From assembly GCF_000733775.1 (NCBI RefSeq), contig NZ_JPOE01000005.1:434001-498000 (forward strand): a stretch of 64,000 bases of DNA, written 5' to 3'. How positions within the stretch are numbered: the stretch's first letter is position 1; every line of letters begins with the position of its first letter. The translations under genes and the position numbers were made by a program. The notes below the pieces were generated by a model. It had not been told where the DNA came from. It worked only from the letters and a program-made list of their open reading frames with translations, and did not search any database. The DNA comes from Thiomonas sp. FB-Cd. Its GTDB lineage: Bacteria > Pseudomonadota > Gammaproteobacteria > Burkholderiales > Burkholderiaceae_C. Shown piece after piece: positions 3 through 6,517 of the stretch.

Positions 3-944
3 GAGAATGTCTGGATCACGCAGAAAATGATGGCGCTGCTCTATGACGTTGACGTCCGAACCATCAACTACCACCTAAAGAAGGTTTTTTCCGATAGCGA
101 ACTGGAGGCTGATTCAGTTATCCGAAATTTTCGGATAACTGCCTCGGACGGCAAGAGCTACGACACCCAGCATTACAAGCTGCCGGCCATCATCGCGGTG
201 GGCTACAAGGTGAATTCCGAGCGAGCTGTGCAGTTCCGCAAGTGGGCGACGGGCATCATCGAGCAGTTCACCATCAAGGCCTACGTGATGGACGATGAGC
301 GCATCAAGGCTGGTGGTTCGGTCCTCACCGATCAGTATTTCGAAGAGCAACTGCAACGTGTCCGCGAGATCCGCATCTCGGAACGCAAGTTCTACCAGAA
401 GATCACGGACATCTACGCCACGGCCATTGACTACGATGTGACGGCCCAGGCCACAAAGCGTTTCTTCGCCACCGTGCAGAACAAGCTGCACTGGGCCATC
501 CACGGACAGACGGCAGCCGAGGTGGTCTACCACCGCGCCGATGCCGACCAGCCCAATATGGGCTTGACCACCTGGAAGGATGCGCCGGGCGGGAAGATTC
601 AGAAGTTCGATGTCGTGGTCGCCAAGAACTACCTGACCGAGCCCGAAATGGCGCAACTCTCACGCCTGGTCAACGCCTATCTGGATGTGGCCGAGGACAT
701 GGCACAGCGCAAAATCCCGATGACCATGCAGGACTGGGAAACCCGCCTGAACCGCTTCATCGAGGCCACCGATCGCGAGGTCCTCCAGGATGCCGGCAAG
801 GTGACGGCGGAAATCGCCAAGGCCCATGCCGAAAGCGAGTTTGAAAAATACCGCATCGTGCAGGATCGGCTGTTTGAGAGCGACTTTGACCGGCTGCTGA
901 AACAGATCGAATCCGGTGATGCGCCCAACACGGGCAAGGACTGA
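3..944 (+). CDS. RhuM family protein (5' end outside window)
   Basis: The frame is open from the first bases of the window: codons before the first ATG (27) read ENVWITQK, the usual N-terminal segment of RhuM proteins, so the true start lies upstream. The motif VDVRTINYHLKKVF, then TASDGKSYDTQHYKLPAII and RAVQFRKWAT, follow the family pattern. RhuM was named from a Salmonella pathogenicity island; its biochemical role is unknown and homologues sit in genomic islands, often near restriction-modification genes. The stop lies 5 bases before the next ATG, so it is probably co-transcribed with the two genes that follow. The C-terminal half looks helical and charged. Family call is from recognition by eye; function is not known. 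Confidence 0.85.
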   Translation, partial: ENVWITQKMMALLYDVDVRTINYHLKKVFSDSELEADSVIRNFRITASDGKSYDTQHYKLPAIIAVGYKVNSERAVQFRKWATGIIEQFTIKAYVMDDERIKAGGSVLTDQYFEEQLQRVREIRISERKFYQKITDIYATAIDYDVTAQATKRFFATVQNKLHWAIHGQTAAEVVYHRADADQPNMGLTTWKDAPGGKIQKFDVVVAKNYLTEPEMAQLSRLVNAYLDVAEDMAQRKIPMTMQDWETRLNRFIEATDREVLQDAGKVTAEIAKAHAESEFEKYRIVQDRLFESDFDRLLKQIESGDAPNTGKD

Positions 945-949
945 CCCGC

Positions 950-1504
950 ATGGCAACGAAGAAACCCACAAGGGCTACACCGAGCTGGGGCGATGTCAAA
1001 ACCAAGCTGGCCGACTTCGACCGCGCAGGTTTGCTGGGGCTGGTGCAAGACCTGTACGCTGCCAGCAAGGAGAACCAGGTATTTCTGCATGCACGCTTTG
1101 CGCTCGGCGACGACGTTCTGAAACCCTACAAGGTCACCATTGACCGTTGGCTGTGGCCGGATGTTTTCAAGAACCAGGACACCTCGGTCGCCAAGGCGAA
1201 GAAGGCGGTTTCGGATTACAAGAAAGCTGTTGGGCAACCCGACGGACTTGCGGAACTGATGGTGTTTTACTGTGAGCGTGCAGCCGGGTTCAGCAACGAC
1301 ATTGGCCTGCAGGATGAGGGTTACTTCGACGCACTAGTGCGAATGTTCGAACAAGCCTTGAAGGCGATTGCCGCATTGCCCGAGGCGGCGCGATCTACGT
1401 TCTGGGAACGTCTGGACGTGGTTCGCAACATCAGCCACAACTTTGGTTACGGTGTGGGCGACGATATGGATGAGTTGCTTTCTGAGTACGGGGTCGATGA
1501 CTGA
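950..1504 (+). CDS. DUF6155-like protein
   Basis: This 184-residue, mostly helical protein has no signal peptide or membrane segment. The stretch LHARFALGDDVLKPYKVTI, followed by a KAKKAVSDYKK helix and LAELMVFYCERAAGFSNDIG, resembles DUF6155, a family without a known function. It starts 5 bases after the RhuM stop and its last codons overlap the start of the primase-helicase gene by 8 bases, which implies translational coupling. By context it may be a partner or regulatory subunit of the downstream nucleic-acid enzyme; that is inference. The domain name is a memory-based match and the least certain of the three in this operon. Confidence 0.7.
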   Translation: MATKKPTRATPSWGDVKTKLADFDRAGLLGLVQDLYAASKENQVFLHARFALGDDVLKPYKVTIDRWLWPDVFKNQDTSVAKAKKAVSDYKKAVGQPDGLAELMVFYCERAAGFSNDIGLQDEGYFDALVRMFEQALKAIAALPEAARSTFWERLDVVRNISHNFGYGVGDDMDELLSEYGVDD

Positions 1505-3860
1505 ACGGACCGCTTATTCAACTCTGCAGGCCGAAAACGCCCGCCTGATCGCGATCCTTGAATCCCACGGCATTGAGTGGCGTATGCCGCAATCGGCCGT
1601 CGTCGTGGCGAGTGATCCGGAGCCTTCCCGGCTTTCCACCGCCGAGAAGGTAGCTCTGTTCCGACGCCTGTTTCGCGGGCGCACAGATGTATACCCGGTC
1701 CGCTGGGAAGGCAAGACCTCAGGCAAGTCAGGCTACGCGCCAGCCTGCGCCAACGAGTGGCGAGCCGGTGTTTGCGAAAAGCCCAGAGTCAAATGCGGCG
1801 ATTGCAGCAACCGCCTGCTGATCCCGCTGTCCGACGCGGTGATCTACGACCATCTGGCTGGCGAGCACACCATTGGTGTCTATCCGCTGCTGGAAGATCA
1901 CACCTGTTACTTCCTCGCTGCAGACTTTGACGAGGCCGACTGGCGTGACGACGCACGAGCCTTCATACAGTCCTGTGAGGAACTGGGTGTTCCAGCGGCG
2001 CTGGAAATCTCTCGGTCTGGGAATGGCGCCCACGCGTGGGTTTTCTTCGCCAGCCGTGTTTCTGCACGTGACGCCCGGCGCCTTGGCACCGCCATCATCA
2101 GCCACACCTGCTCGCGTACCCGGCAACTGAAGCTGGAATCCTACGACCGGCTGTTCCCGAACCAGGACACGATGCCCAAAGGCGGCTTCGGCAACCTGAT
2201 CGCTTTGCCGCTGCAAAAGTCGCCTCGCGAGAGTGGCTGCAGCGTGTTCGTCGACGCTGACCTGCAACCTTATCCAGATCAGTGGGGATTCCTGGCGTCT
2301 ATCCAGCCCATGCCGGTACACGACATCGAGCCGACCATCCTGCGTGCCACAGGTGGCGTCCATCCACTTGACGTCACCTTCATCGATGATGAAGACCTGG
2401 CCACACCCTGGAAGCGGCAGAGCACGGCGACCAATAAGCTGGCTGGGCAGATGCCCAAGTCGCTGACCGTGACGCTGGCCAATCTGGTTTATTTTGAGAA
2501 GGCCCAACTTCCGCAGGCACTGGCCAACCGCCTGATCCGTCTGGCAGCTTTCCAGAATCCCGAGTTCTACAAAGCCCAGGCCATGCGCATGTCGGTCTGG
2601 GACAAGCCCCGTGTCATCGGCAATGCGGAGAACTACCCGCAGCACATCGCCTTGCCTCGCGGTTGCCTCGATGCCGCGCTGGATCTGCTGCGGGTCACCG
2701 GCATCGCCTGTGACCTGCGCGATGAGTGCTTCGGCGGGGAACCCATCGACGTCTCCTTCGTCGGCTCTTTGCGTCTGGACCAGGAGGCTGCAGTTGCCGG
2801 AATGCTGCATCACGACACCGGCGTGCTGTGCGCTCCAACGGCCTTTGGCAAAACGGTCACTGCCGCCGCAATGATCGCTCGCCGTGGTGTAAACACACTG
2901 GTGCTGGTACATCGAACGGAACTGCTCAAGCAATGGCAGGAACGTCTGCAGGCTTTTCTGGGTGTTGGAAAGGGCGTGGTCGGCACCATCGGGGGTGGCA
3001 AAGCCAAACCTACTGGCAAGATCGACATTGCCGTGATGCAGTCCGTCTCCCGACAGGGCGAAGTGAACCCGTTGGTAGAAAACTATGGTCAGGTGATTGT
3101 GGACGAGTGCCACCACGTTGGCGCTGTGTCGTTTGATGCCATCTTGAAGCGGACCAGGGCCAAGTACGTGCTGGGCCTGACAGCGACACCCATCCGCCGT
3201 GATGGTCAGCAACCCATCATCTTCATGCAGTGCGGGCCGATCCGATACACGGCGGCCAGCCCCGCTGGCGCGCCACACGACCTGGAAGTGCTGCCTCGTT
3301 CACGCTTTACGCGTATCGACCTGCCCACCGATGCTGGCATCCAAGACGTGTTTCGACATCTCGCCAATGACCAGGCGAGGACGGAGTCCATCGCCGCCGA
3401 GGTGCGTGATGCAGTCGGTCAGGGACGCAAGGTGCTGGTCCTGACCGAGCGTACGGAACACCTCGATGCCATCAAGGCCGAGCTCGACGGCCTGCTACCG
3501 GTACCGTTCGTCTTGCATGGTCGAATGTCGAAGAAGCAGCGATCGGCGCTGGTTGCAGACCTTGATGCACTACCGCCCGATGCGCCGCGCGTTCTACTTT
3601 CGACTGGGAAGCTGGTTGGCGAGGGCTTCGATCACCCGCCGTTGGACACCCTGGTACTGGCTATGCCAGTTTCCTGGAAAGGCACCCTTCAGCAGTACGC
3701 CGGGCGCCTGCACCGTGAGCACGCCTGCAAGGCCGACGTGCGGATCATTGACTTCGTGGACACCGGCCACCCGGCGCTACTGCGGATGTGGGACAAGCGG
3801 CAGGCTGGTTACAAGGCGATGGGATACCGATTGGGTGGTGACGTGGCTGTGACTGAATGA
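1497..3860 (+). CDS. TOTE-type archaeo-eukaryotic primase fused to SF2 helicase
   Basis: This is a fusion of about 787 residues. A short coiled coil (residues 8-28) leads to a primase-like domain: VYPVRWEGK (65-73), a Cys cluster at 84, 93, 100 and 103 likely to bind zinc, the metal-binding DFD (143-145), SRSGNGAH (172-179), and later FGNLIALPLQ. The second half is a superfamily 2 helicase: Walker A-like PTAFGKT near 447, VDECHH near 535, LGLTATPIRRDG, and a C-terminal LQQYAGRLHR arginine-finger motif. This is the TOTE conflict-system layout known from comparative genomics; an activity against invading DNA is predicted rather than proven in that family. The ATG at 1497 is chosen because homologous sequence begins there and it overlaps the previous stop; the open frame extends back to 1368 only as antisense-like filler. 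All key residues look intact. Confidence 0.88.
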   Translation: MTERTAYSTLQAENARLIAILESHGIEWRMPQSAVVVASDPEPSRLSTAEKVALFRRLFRGRTDVYPVRWEGKTSGKSGYAPACANEWRAGVCEKPRVKCGDCSNRLLIPLSDAVIYDHLAGEHTIGVYPLLEDHTCYFLAADFDEADWRDDARAFIQSCEELGVPAALEISRSGNGAHAWVFFASRVSARDARRLGTAIISHTCSRTRQLKLESYDRLFPNQDTMPKGGFGNLIALPLQKSPRESGCSVFVDADLQPYPDQWGFLASIQPMPVHDIEPTILRATGGVHPLDVTFIDDEDLATPWKRQSTATNKLAGQMPKSLTVTLANLVYFEKAQLPQALANRLIRLAAFQNPEFYKAQAMRMSVWDKPRVIGNAENYPQHIALPRGCLDAALDLLRVTGIACDLRDECFGGEPIDVSFVGSLRLDQEAAVAGMLHHDTGVLCAPTAFGKTVTAAAMIARRGVNTLVLVHRTELLKQWQERLQAFLGVGKGVVGTIGGGKAKPTGKIDIAVMQSVSRQGEVNPLVENYGQVIVDECHHVGAVSFDAILKRTRAKYVLGLTATPIRRDGQQPIIFMQCGPIRYTAASPAGAPHDLEVLPRSRFTRIDLPTDAGIQDVFRHLANDQARTESIAAEVRDAVGQGRKVLVLTERTEHLDAIKAELDGLLPVPFVLHGRMSKKQRSALVADLDALPPDAPRVLLSTGKLVGEGFDHPPLDTLVLAMPVSWKGTLQQYAGRLHREHACKADVRIIDFVDTGHPALLRMWDKRQAGYKAMGYRLGGDVAVTE

Positions 3861-3874
3861 CATTCGCAAGTTCT

Positions 3875-3884
3875 CACTTAAGCC
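3875..3884. repeat. Left target-site duplication of the IS4-type element
   Basis: CACTTAAGCC is repeated directly at 5342-5351, immediately outside the two inverted repeats. Confidence 0.88.
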
Positions 3885-4071
3885 CAATACTGTTCAGATA
3901 CGGAGGATCGGTTGCGGCTGATGGCGTTGATGGAGGGTTTCGCCGCGACGGCGCAAGGGGTAGTTGCTCATCTTGCGCTTGACGCCGCGCGGATTGGTTT
4001 GCCCTCGGCTGCTCACGCAGCGGCCGCAGGCGATTTCCTCGAGCAGCGCGTCGCGCCACTGGGGCAGATGC

Positions 4072-5273
4072 TCAGGGGGGAATGGCCGCGGCTTGCGGCA
4101 TTTTTCGCTTGATCACACGCACCGCGTGGGTAAAGCTCAGGCGATCCGGATCGAGACTGCGCGGCCAGGCGGCTTGCGCCATGAGCTGGCGAATGGCGAA
4201 GTGTGCCAGAAGCAACCCCAGAGTTCCTGCCTCACCAACTCCGGCGTCTTGCTGCGCAGGACGGTACTGTTGGAGCGCAGATGCGTCTTGAATTCGGCGA
4301 AGACGCTCTCGATCTCCCAACGCTCGTGGTAGAGCGCCGCCAGTTCGAGCGCCGGCGCATCCACGGGGTCCAGGATGTTGGTGACCAACCGGTAGCTGTC
4401 CTGCGTCGGCGTGGCGGAGTTGCTCAACAGGTACTCGACGACCCGGATGGTGTGTCCGACGCGCTCGCGCTGGCGATCCTCGCTGTCGAACACCGTGCTG
4501 AGATAGGAGCCGTCGGGCAGTGTCTTTTCAATCGGCAGTTTGATCGTGGATCGCACTCTCCAGGCCAGCTTGGCGCCGGTGGCGCACGCCAGGCTCCAGA
4601 GCTTGAATCCGTAGAAGCCGCGGTCGGCCAGCACCAGCATGTCTGGCGTCAACTTCCCAGGCAGTAGTTGGCTGGCCATGGCACGTTCGCTCTGGTGATA
4701 GGGCGCAATGTCGGCGGCCACCACCGCGTGGGTTCCACACTCCACCAGGCCCAGCAGCCGCGCCTGTGGAAAGGCGCTCTGGCCGCGGGCAGCACCGGGA
4801 TAGCCGAAATAGTCGGCGTTGGCCGCCTCGTCGGCCACATCCATGCAGCTTCCGTCCAAGGCCATCACGCGCAGTCCGCGATACCAGGCGCCCGGCGCCC
4901 CGGGCTGAGCGAGCGGTCGCAACACCCGCTGGGCCAACCGATGCAGGACTTCGGCGCCCAGCCGCGTGCGCGCCTGCGAAATCGCCGATTTGCTGGCTTG
5001 GACCGCACCGGCTCGACCCCCACCCAGCCATTGCAGGCCCTCGCAGACCACCCGCAGCACTTCCTCCAAAGGCGCTTCGCGCCACAGCGCCAACGCCATC
5101 ACGTAGTACACCACCGCCGGTGCAGGTAATAGACGCTCACGCTGACTGGCTCGGCCTGTCTCGCTCAGCACTTCCTCAATCAGCGCCCGCGGACACACGC
5201 TGGCGAGCACGCCTGCGCTGATCAGGTGCGCCACATCCACCTGCGCTGCAAGCGTCTTGCGTGTTCTAGCCAT
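4072..5273 (-). pseudogene. IS4-family DDE transposase, frameshifted near C-terminus
   Basis: The first 350 or so residues read as an IS4 transposase with an N-terminal IS4 domain and DDE catalytic core: ALDGS (first Asp), LADRGFYG (second Asp) and YHERWEIESVFAEFK (the Y-R-E-K signature with the Glu). After RQELWG the frame shifts: the open frame runs to a stop at 4137 with unrelated residues, while the family-like ending LLLAHFAIRQLMAQAAWP continues in the other frame to 4072. One missing G in the run of four at 4216-4219 (C on the plus strand) explains it. Because the catalytic residues precede the break, residual activity is possible, but the native C-terminus is lost. Confidence 0.85.
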
Positions 5274-5325
5274 GCCCCGCCCTCATCCAAGTCTCAATGA
5301 GGACGAATTATCGCTGATTACACTC

Positions 5326-5341
5326 TATCTGAACAGTATTG
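5326..5341. repeat. Right inverted repeat of the IS4-type element
   Basis: TATCTGAACAGTATTG is the exact reverse complement of the left end at 3885-3900. Confidence 0.9.
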
Positions 5342-5425
5342 CACTTAAGCCCGCAGCAGCCCTCGCCAGTGCTCATAAGCTTGGGAGGCCAGTCAGCACA
5401 TGGTCAACTGTCCGCCACCATACAC

Positions 5426-5459
5426 AAGGGCTCGGAAAATCTCCGGGCCCTTTTCTTTT
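5426..5459 (+). terminator. Intrinsic terminator-like hairpin
   Basis: AAGGGC-T-CGGA pairs with TCCG-G-GCCCTT across an AAATC loop and is followed by a T-rich tract (TTTTCTTTTC). Without the IS4 element it would stand about 100 bp after the primase-helicase gene, so it was probably that operon's terminator. Confidence 0.7.
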
Positions 5460-5684
5460 CCCGAAATTCCCGCGCCGCCCGGGATTCCGGCCATCCGTGC
5501 TGCGGGTGGCCACCTGCCGAAACGCCCCGAATCGGCTACTTTCTCGGCCAGCGCCGTCTCTTTTCTCCGTTTGGCCCTGCGGGTAGGCGCAGATGCTGGT
5601 CTTGCAAAATAAACAGCTTACGTGCGCCGGTTCAATGTCACCCAAGGCCACCGGGTACCAGCGCAACTAAACAGTGTATGTCAC

Positions 5685-5729: not shown

Positions 5730-6023
5730 ATGACTGCTGTTGCATCGTCGCCTTCCGCTCGCTCCGCCCGACTTGGGCTGCGCGCCACCCCCGAACAGGA
5801 GGTGGTGCTGCGCCGTGCAGCTGAAGTGGCCCACAAGTCGCTGACCGATTTCATCCTCGACAGCGCTTGCCTGGCCGCCGAGCAGACACTGCTCGATCAA
5901 CGATTGTTCATGGTCTCGGGCAGCCAGTACCAGGCCCTGATGGATCTGCTGGAGCGCCCCGAACAGGCCAATGAGGGTTTGCGTGATCTGTTTGCCCGCA
6001 AGGCTCCCTGGGACGCGAAGTGA
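5730..6023 (+). CDS. DUF1778 / TacA-like antitoxin
   Basis: A 97-residue protein. The N-terminal half, from RLGLRATPEQEVVLRRAAE to LTDFILDSA, is the ribbon-helix-helix DNA-binding domain of DUF1778 antitoxins; the C-terminal part (LFARKAPW end) matches the toxin-binding tail of TacA proteins. It should neutralise the acetyltransferase toxin encoded next and repress the shared promoter. An AGAGG stands just before the ATG. The stop overlaps the toxin start by 4 bases (GTGA), typical for such pairs. Confidence 0.92.
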   Translation: MTAVASSPSARSARLGLRATPEQEVVLRRAAEVAHKSLTDFILDSACLAAEQTLLDQRLFMVSGSQYQALMDLLERPEQANEGLRDLFARKAPWDAK

Positions 6024-6517
6024 CGTTGCGCGCACCGGAGCCCCTGGCCGCGCAACATCGGCTGGAAGGTTTTGATTGCGGCAAGCCCGCACTAAACGAC
6101 TGGCTCTTCCGCCACTCGCGCCAAGCCCAGGGCAGTGGCTCGGCCAAGACCTTCGTCGTTGCCGAGGACGATGGCCGCGTGGCGGGCTACTTCAGCCTGA
6201 CCGTGGGGCAGGTTGATTCGCTGGAAGCGCCGGAGCGTATCCGCAAGGGAATGGGGCAGTACCCCTTACCGGTGGTGATACTGGCGAGGCTCGCTGTCTC
6301 GGTGGTGGATCAGGGGCGAGGCATAGGCTTTGGCCTGCAGCAGGATGCGATTCGCCGCACGATGCTGATTGCCGAGCAGGCCGGCATCCGGGCCATGCTG
6401 ACCCATCCCATCGATCAAGAAGCGGCGCGGTTCTACACCCGGTTCGGGTTCAACGCATCACCCCTGCGGGAACAGCAACTTCTCCTGCTGCTCAAGGATG
6501 CAAAGAAGGTCGTCTGA
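6020..6517 (+). CDS. GNAT toxin, TacT-like
   Basis: This 165-residue GCN5-type N-acetyltransferase begins with a GTG that overlaps the antitoxin stop. LEGFDCGKPALNDWL at the N-terminus is characteristic of TacT-class toxins, which acetylate the amino group of charged aminoacyl-tRNAs and stop translation. The acetyl-CoA loop is represented by QGRGIGFGLQQDA, and the C-terminal ARFYTRFGF contains the Tyr-Phe pair of the fold. The gene looks intact. Specificity for a given tRNA cannot be read from the sequence. Confidence 0.92.
   Translation: MTLRAPEPLAAQHRLEGFDCGKPALNDWLFRHSRQAQGSGSAKTFVVAEDDGRVAGYFSLTVGQVDSLEAPERIRKGMGQYPLPVVILARLAVSVVDQGRGIGFGLQQDAIRRTMLIAEQAGIRAMLTHPIDQEAARFYTRFGFNASPLREQQLLLLLKDAKKVV

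What the first reader, a model, noticed from the sequence alone, without database searches (positions are those of the whole stretch)
3..3860. RhuM / DUF6155-like / TOTE primase-helicase operon as a candidate defence system
Three tightly packed genes (5 bp gap, then 8 bp overlap) join two poorly understood families to an intact AEP primase-SF2 helicase fusion. TOTE-type enzymes are predicted conflict effectors; the pairing with RhuM and a DUF6155-like protein is not one I know as a named system. Seen directly: the overlaps, DFD, SRSGNGAH, PTAFGKT and VDECHH motifs. Inference: the three act together against phage or plasmids.
Basis: partly seen in the sequence, partly recalled or inferred. Interest (0 to 1): 0.75.

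Follow-up and report, generated by a model that had tools for sequence, protein, structure and literature searches.

The report
Restriction operon ending in a primase-helicase
The three genes are the tail of a four-gene run that starts with a DNA-restriction enzyme, and the last gene, a primase fused to a helicase, is a portable add-on found behind many different defence and toxin genes; each piece is of a known kind, but the add-on pattern is worth testing.

Summary
The sequence observation is right: RhuM (3-944, cut by the window edge), a DUF6155-like protein (950-1504) and an intact AEP-TOTE primase/SF2 helicase (1497-3860), with a 5-bp gap and an 8-bp overlap. The stand-alone trio reading is only partly supported. 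Just upstream of the window lies a fourth gene of the run, a fused GmrSD-type (type IV) restriction enzyme. The full trio occurs in 7 of the 80 nearest TOTE loci and 0 of 20 class-sample places. In 7 of 8 trio loci (window included) a restriction system precedes it on the same strand: type I in five, McrBC in one, GmrSD here. Restriction genes lie upstream in 11 and downstream in 0 of 41 nearest loci; an Aeromonas plasmid outside that set has them downstream. Other TOTE genes follow AbiEii, Schlafen-like, HipA or PDDEXK genes, or sit in Tn3 modules. Best reading: a stacked anti-invader operon in which TOTE is an exchangeable CAPP-like primase-polymerase/helicase and the DUF6155-like protein its frequent coupled partner. 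Defence and TOTE's substrate are inferred, not shown.

The parts
3..944 (+). RhuM-family protein (PADLOC candidate PDC-S05), cut at its N-terminus by the window edge; full gene starts at -129 (ATG) or -132 (GTG). The first gene of the operon, a fused GmrSD-type restriction enzyme of 575 aa, lies wholly upstream of the window at -1886 to -159 (L001:14114-15841, + strand)
   Evidence: RhuM: PF13310 1.9e-107; PDC-S05 1.4e-145; full frame. GmrSD: PF03235 1.3e-34 and PF07510 1.5e-21; PADLOC Orf5 1e-80, HEC-06 1.7e-58; IPDYQRAYVW, DGQQRLTTL and EHILPQ...LGNLMLL motifs read in the translation
950..1504 (+). DUF6155-like all-helical protein, 184 aa
   Evidence: PF19652 6.2e-4, below cut-off; 26-33% identity to three annotated DUF6155 proteins on Bacteroides plasmids; model pLDDT 84, ten helices
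1497..3860 (+). AEP-TOTE primase-polymerase fused to an XPB/RadD-like SF2 helicase, 787 aa
   Evidence: PF22548 1.1e-101, ResIII 8.1e-23; closest solved relatives 7nqd/7nqf for the primase part and XPB/RadD chains for the helicase
1746..1805 (+). four-cysteine motif C84, C93, C100, C103 of TOTE, predicted zinc site
   Evidence: each cysteine kept in at least 99% of 92 rows; zinc binding inferred
1497..1504 (+). 8-bp overlap of the DUF6155-like stop and the TOTE start
   Evidence: same overlap in 20 of 24 other junctions
3875..5349 (-). IS4-like insertion sequence 14 bp after the TOTE stop, with its own 8-bp target duplication (CACTTAAG); bounds the operon, not part of it
   Evidence: 79% identical to a plasmid copy annotated ISBvi1 family

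Best explanation
The locus is a stacked anti-invader operon, GmrSD - RhuM - DUF6155-like - TOTE. GmrSD is the first layer, a nuclease expected to cut modified foreign DNA. RhuM is a second, probably toxin-like layer often attached to restriction systems. The last two genes are a pair with overlapping reading frames: a small helical protein, proposed as a regulator or adaptor, and an exchangeable primase-polymerase/helicase that works without any one fixed partner. I propose that TOTE loads on broken, gapped or replicating foreign DNA, unwinds it with its XPB/RadD-like motor and primes or copies strands with its CAPP-like polymerase, so that the invader cannot be repaired or replicated. Shown: the genes, intact motifs, conserved junctions, tail position behind restriction systems in the nearest relatives, and partner exchange. 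Inferred: co-transcription and translational coupling, defence, the RhuM toxin role, the adaptor role, and TOTE's substrate and outcome.
For: GmrSD identity and its HEC-06 match; PMC12988326 (passages) says that HECs including HEC-06 showed antiviral activity in assays of a cited preprint. In 7 of 8 trio loci a restriction system precedes the trio on the same strand. Upstream against downstream in the nearest loci: 11 of 41 against 0 of 41; HsdM 13 of 45 against 0 of 49. Of 47 other immediate upstream genes: AbiEii 6, YgjP-like 4, SLFN_AlbA_2 3, type I R domain 2, ParE 2, single SIR2, HipA, PIN and PDDEXK_9 (first 25 of 34 families shown). 8-bp overlap in 20 of 24 junctions; DUF6155-TOTE distances correlate, r 0.71, 0 of 2000 permutations as high, n 22. 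Motifs kept in 92 rows. CAPP relatives prime, polymerise and displace strands (PMC8211822, abstract and passages). RhuM proposed as an R-M-linked toxin (PMC3710099, passages).
Against: No phage or plasmid assay of this locus was available to me. The class sample shows the restriction link weakly: 1 of 9 places upstream, on the opposite strand. On an Aeromonas plasmid the type I genes lie downstream of TOTE, same strand, about 1.5 kb away. One immediate upstream gene is an AcrB-type transporter. In 26 of 100 loci TOTE has no same-strand gene within 250 bp upstream. A single-sequence search found GmrSD before TOTE in no other locus of the three sets. TOTE also sits in Tn3 transposition modules and AlpA/YfjI elements, which fits mobility as well as defence. 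The set of 80 holds some near copies and two loci of one genome (L024, L101).
Confidence: 0.5

Rival explanations
1. TOTE is a DNA-end processing partner of the upstream nuclease: it acts on the breaks made by GmrSD, McrBC or type I enzymes, either to finish the invader's DNA or to repair host DNA cut in error.
For: Tail position behind type I, McrBC, GmrSD and PDDEXK/YhcG nuclease genes; RadD/XPB-like helicase and primase-polymerase relatives.
Against: TOTE is as readily found after toxin genes that are not DNA nucleases (AbiEii 6 of 47, ParE 2, HipA 1) and with no near upstream gene (26 of 100); its partners change between close relatives.
Confidence: 0.2
2. TOTE is a helper of mobile elements (replication, establishment or transposition) and only travels in defence-rich islands.
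For: It lies between resolvase and Tn3 transposase in two plasmids, in AlpA/YfjI elements of two E. coli plasmids, and on many plasmids (327 records with a match, 91 covering at least 80%). [quoted passage not shown]
Against: Searches with five reference proteins (Tn3 transposase, resolvase, one tyrosine integrase, IS630, IS66) show none at a fixed place beside TOTE in the 100 loci; restriction genes lie upstream in 11 and downstream in 0 of 41 nearest loci (Aeromonas plasmid is an exception); no phage record of 50,697 covers 80% of TOTE, although 1125 match part of it, in the listed rows the helicase part.
Confidence: 0.2
3. One reading: RhuM, the DUF6155-like protein and TOTE are one dedicated three-gene defence system.
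For: Trio recurs in 7 further loci with the same 5-bp gap (7 of 7) and the 8-bp overlap in 6 of 7; between the window and L053 all three proteins are about 80% identical.
Against: Absent from 73 of 80 nearest loci and 20 of 20 class-sample places; the trio label needs at least 4 changes on a quick TOTE tree, 3 of them forced by strongly supported branches; RhuM split or short in 3 of 8 trio loci; RhuM-TOTE distance correlation weaker, r 0.41, 43 of 2000 permutations as high, n 12.
Confidence: 0.1

Closest known systems
AEP-TOTE (Pfam PF22548) and non-CRISPR CAPP_A-helicase primase-polymerases
   Same: AEP domain with DxD and H motifs and a C-terminal helicase; closest solved primase chains 7nqd/7nqf (that these are CAPP chains is recalled); NCBIfam 'CRISPR-associated primase-polymerase type A1' 3.1e-21, below its cut-off; PADLOC PrimPol profile 1.3e-117
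   Different: Operon partners here are a restriction enzyme, RhuM and a DUF6155-like gene; no Cas family among the first 25 of 34 Pfam families of 47 upstream neighbours
RhuM family / PADLOC PDC-S05
   Same: Profile matches; type I R-M genes within about 1.5 kb in 11 of the 30 best RhuM loci of the class sample, window included, as reported for R-M loci in PMC3710099 (passages)
   Different: Here it follows a GmrSD enzyme; no DOC match in the Pfam scan of the part inside the window
GmrSD-type restriction enzymes / PADLOC HEC-06
   Same: Both GmrSD domains in one chain, motifs present; HEC-06 1.7e-58
   Different: Best PADLOC model is 'Orf5' (1e-80), whose system I could not identify; modification dependence untested
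DUF6155 (PF19652)
   Same: Weak match across most of the domain; 26-33% identity to annotated members
   Different: Below the family cut-off; a distinct branch, often but not always beside TOTE

Membership tests
AEP-TOTE / CAPP-like primase-polymerase | AEP-TOTE domain over the curated cut-off | tested here: met
   339.7 bits against 27
AEP-TOTE / CAPP-like primase-polymerase | motifs I (hhhDhD/E) and II (sxH) | tested here: met
   ADFD and GNGAH, key residues kept in at least 95% of 92 rows; motif definitions from PMC5862659 (passage)
AEP-TOTE / CAPP-like primase-polymerase | motif III (hD/E) | tested here: inconclusive
   FVD at 251-253 aligns with FVD of 7nqf, but D253 is below 95% in 92 rows
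CRISPR-associated CAPP | operon with cas1/cas2 | tested here: inconclusive
   no Cas1/Cas2 call for RhuM, TOTE or GmrSD, and only weak Cas1 matches (E 0.005) for the DUF6155-like protein; other flanking genes were not scanned for Cas. TOTE does match PADLOC's CRISPR-associated PrimPol profile (1.3e-117)
AEP-TOTE / CAPP-like primase-polymerase | priming and polymerase activity | not testable with these tools
   shown for CAPPs in PMC8211822 (abstract), not for this protein
RhuM / PDC-S05 | RhuM domain over cut-off | tested here: met
   358.7 bits against 33.7
RhuM / PDC-S05 | antiviral or toxin activity | not testable with these tools
GmrSD type IV restriction enzyme | N- and C-terminal GmrSD domains in one chain | tested here: met
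   PF03235 120.5 bits against 33.2; PF07510 77.2 against 23
GmrSD type IV restriction enzyme | cleavage dependent on DNA modification | not testable with these tools
   needs biochemistry
DUF6155 | profile score over cut-off | tested here: not met
   20.1 bits against 27; hence called DUF6155-like
composite transposon | one target duplication at the outer ends of the two IS copies | tested here: not met
   each copy has its own 8-bp duplication, CTTTAGTG and CACTTAAG
stand-alone RhuM-DUF6155-TOTE system | the three genes occur together in most hosts | tested here: not met
   7 of 80 nearest and 0 of 20 class-sample TOTE loci

The most novel reading that the evidence does not exclude
TOTE, often with the DUF6155-like protein, is a universal plug-in: one primase-polymerase/helicase that attaches by tight junctions to the tail of unrelated restriction, toxin and transposition modules and adds the same DNA-level activity to each, so that a single enzyme family boosts many defence systems.
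Probability: 0.3. Interest if true: 0.75.

Novelty: new variant of a known kind. Interest (0 to 1): 0.5.

Why it matters
The role of non-CRISPR CAPP/TOTE primase-helicases looks open: five library searches found no paper on TOTE in this sense, and the passages I saw of PMC8211822 assign these homologues no role. The tail-gene pattern gives a direct test: does the same enzyme strengthen restriction systems as different as type I, McrBC and GmrSD? If so, DNA synthesis would join cutting and modification as a general layer of bacterial immunity.

Tried and rejected
Composite transposon: rejected, because each IS copy has its own target duplication. DUF6155-like protein as a Cas1 relative: rejected as noise (E 0.005, a 37-residue stretch). 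Fold of the DUF6155-like protein: good model (pLDDT 84), but 0 PDB matches at E 0.001 or below; the top ones include designed helical repeats and 14-3-3 proteins, so no function follows. RhuM model: pLDDT 58, not searched. Solved relatives by sequence: none convincing for RhuM or the DUF6155-like protein. Literature: no paper; two searches gave papers without TOTE in this sense; DUF6155: 0 papers. Sequence between the left IS and GmrSD: no plasmid match by megablast. A first distance comparison took a wrong long helicase for L099 and was replaced. The binomial p-value rests on a guessed 795 Mb and a rounded 300 HsdM matches (the list typed sums to 314), so it is not used as evidence. One search was a search for PADLOC candidate names; most of its listed papers were unrelated.
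Full report
What is there. The window begins inside a tight gene run. RhuM ends at 944, the DUF6155-like gene runs 950-1504 and the TOTE gene 1497-3860, so the 5-bp gap and 8-bp overlap are right. Pfam gives RhuM 1.9e-107, AEP-TOTE 1.1e-101 with an SF2 helicase, and DUF6155 only 6.2e-4, below its cut-off.

What the window edge hides. The window is G000:C5:434001-498000. Upstream sequence shows RhuM starting about 130 bp before the window and, 29 bp before its ATG, the end of a 575-aa gene on the same strand. That gene is a fused GmrSD-type restriction enzyme (PF03235 1.3e-34, PF07510 1.5e-21), closest in PADLOC to 'Orf5' and HEC-06 models. PMC12988326 (passages only) reports that HECs including HEC-06 have shown antiviral activity, citing a preprint. 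The unit is therefore GmrSD - RhuM - DUF6155-like - TOTE. Two IS4-like copies, 99.6% identical and inverted, flank it at about -6113 to -4638 and 3875 to 5349, but each has its own 8-bp duplication, so they inserted separately.

Does the trio recur? Within 1.5 kb upstream on the same strand, 7 of 80 have both RhuM and DUF6155-like, 7 RhuM only, 11 DUF6155-like only, 55 neither (one of the RhuM-only loci, L061, also holds a short DUF6155 fragment; in some loci the contig ends close upstream, so 'neither' is an upper figure). A class sample of 274 genomes gave 32 TOTE places in 26 genomes; I fetched 20, leaving out the window's own and 11 short or weak pieces. Of these 20, 2 have DUF6155-like, 18 neither, 0 RhuM; several of the 20 are fragments. 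Over the 274 genomes TOTE is in 26, RhuM in 84 and the DUF6155-like protein in 10; 7 of those 10 DUF6155-like places show no TOTE in the fetched stretch, two of which are short contigs. Among 31 genomes (own, 18 of the genus, 12 of the order) 4 have TOTE, all in the genus. In one of these, G287, the nearest TOTE (92% identical) follows a DUF6155-like gene (66%) at a few hundred bases, with no RhuM match. So the trio is real but a minority arrangement, and all three genes are accessory.

How the junctions behave. The DUF6155-TOTE overlap is 8 bp in 20 of 24 junctions, one of them extrapolated, and the RhuM-DUF6155 gap 5 bp in 7 of 8. DUF6155-like and TOTE distances correlate (r 0.71, 0 of 2000 permutations as high, n 22); RhuM and TOTE less (r 0.41, 43 of 2000, n 12). 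On a quick 92-row TOTE tree the trio label needs at least 4 changes, 3 of them forced by strongly supported branches. The nearest relative of the window's TOTE (L023, 94% identical, Acidovorax defluvii) has neither partner; it ends a type I R-M gene run through a YgjP-like gene. RhuM is split or short in 3 of the 8 trio loci, L050, L052 and L081, which argues that RhuM is dispensable; sequencing errors in draft assemblies cannot be excluded.

What lies upstream of TOTE. In 7 of 8 trio loci a restriction system precedes the trio on the same strand: type I in L027, L050, L052, L053, L054 (for L053 HsdM and HsdS were found, HsdR not), McrBC in L049, GmrSD in the window; L081 has none. Over the 41 nearest loci with at least 6 kb on both sides, restriction genes lie within 6 kb upstream in 11, all same-strand, and downstream in 0. 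HsdM alone is upstream in 13 of 45 and downstream in 0 of 49 loci with at least 9 kb on that side. Against this, in the class sample 1 of 9 places has a restriction gene upstream, on the other strand, and on an Aeromonas plasmid outside these sets a type I system lies downstream of TOTE on the same strand. Of 74 immediate same-strand upstream genes (100 loci), 25 are RhuM or DUF6155-like; I dropped two more (a contig-edge fragment and a near copy of an AbiEii locus) and scanned 47: AbiEii 6, YgjP-like 4, WLM 4 (overlapping), HTH_3 4, SLFN_AlbA_2 3, type I R domain 2, ParE 2, single SIR2, HipA, PIN, PDDEXK_9, RNA ligase and an AcrB-type transporter; 25 of 34 families were shown. In 26 of 100 loci no same-strand gene of 70 aa or more lies within 250 bp. 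On plasmids the pair follows a PDDEXK nuclease twice in Cupriavidus oxalaticus, TOTE follows HipA in Undibacterium and an NYN gene in Aeromonas, and lies between resolvase and Tn3 transposase in E. albertii and, with a shortened transposase, Pantoea.

What TOTE is. Its AEP domain matches chains 7nqd/7nqf (9.5e-11), which I recall to be CAPP structures; NCBIfam's CRISPR-associated primase-polymerase model matches below cut-off (3.1e-21) and PADLOC's PrimPol profile at 1.3e-117. Its helicase matches XPB and RadD structures. PMC8211822 (abstract and passages) shows that CAPPs prime, polymerise and displace strands, and says that homologues outside CRISPR operons are typically in mobile elements, some in phages, and most often carry a helicase domain. 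TOTE fits that description. I found no paper on TOTE itself.

RhuM and the DUF6155-like protein. PMC3710099 (passages) reports RhuM-like genes in R-M loci, often fused to DOC, and proposes a toxin role. In 11 of the 30 best RhuM loci of the class sample, type I genes lie within about 1.5 kb; TOTE is in 1, the window itself. The DUF6155-like protein is predicted all-helical (pLDDT 84) with no confident structural relative; its adaptor role is a guess from the overlap and co-divergence.

How it most likely works. I favour stacked layers: a restriction enzyme first, a toxin-like RhuM behind it, and the DUF6155-TOTE pair as an exchangeable enzyme acting on broken, gapped or replicating foreign DNA. 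The anatomy and partner exchange are shown; transcription as one unit, defence and the DNA-level outcome are inferred. The main rivals are a repair or end-processing role tied to the nuclease, and a mobile-element helper role supported by the Tn3 and AlpA/YfjI contexts.

Verdict. Known families in an informative arrangement: a new variant of a known kind. The surprising part is not the trio but the portable tail gene.

Noticed in passing
L193:6367-12304; L194:6367-10274: TOTE lies between a resolvase and a Tn3-family transposase, same strand and close gaps, in E. albertii pESA134_1 and (transposase shortened) Pantoea stewartii pDSJ06, the place that toxin-antitoxin genes take in some Tn3 elements (recalled).
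   Followed up: partly
L195:3060-9331; L196:3161-9337: In two E. coli plasmids TOTE follows an inovirus-type Gp2 gene in stretches with AlpA and YfjI genes, which I take to be P4-like elements.
   Followed up: no
5730-6517: A TacA1-type antitoxin gene (PF08681 1.5e-23) overlaps a GNAT acetyltransferase gene, a TacAT-like toxin-antitoxin pair beyond the right IS. Same-genus genome G287 (L182) has the same pair (95% and 86% identical) about 2.5 kb downstream of its DUF6155-TOTE genes.
   Followed up: partly
L001 and window 3875-5349: Two inverted, 99.6% identical IS4-like copies (the left one at -6113 to -4638, upstream of the window), each with its own 8-bp target duplication.
   Followed up: yes
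L001, upstream of the window at -3189 to -2939: A short sequence left of GmrSD recurs near TOTE loci L024 (three places), L028, L030 and L101; a similar peptide is read right of the window IS near 5400-5612 (by eye). Nature unknown.
   Followed up: no
L003 with L199; L005 with L200: Azotobacter salinestris and Cupriavidus oxalaticus plasmids each carry the DUF6155-TOTE pair twice.
   Followed up: no
L037, L039, L055, L064, L066, L069, L074: TOTE frame is split in several of the 80 loci (decay or assembly error).
   Followed up: no
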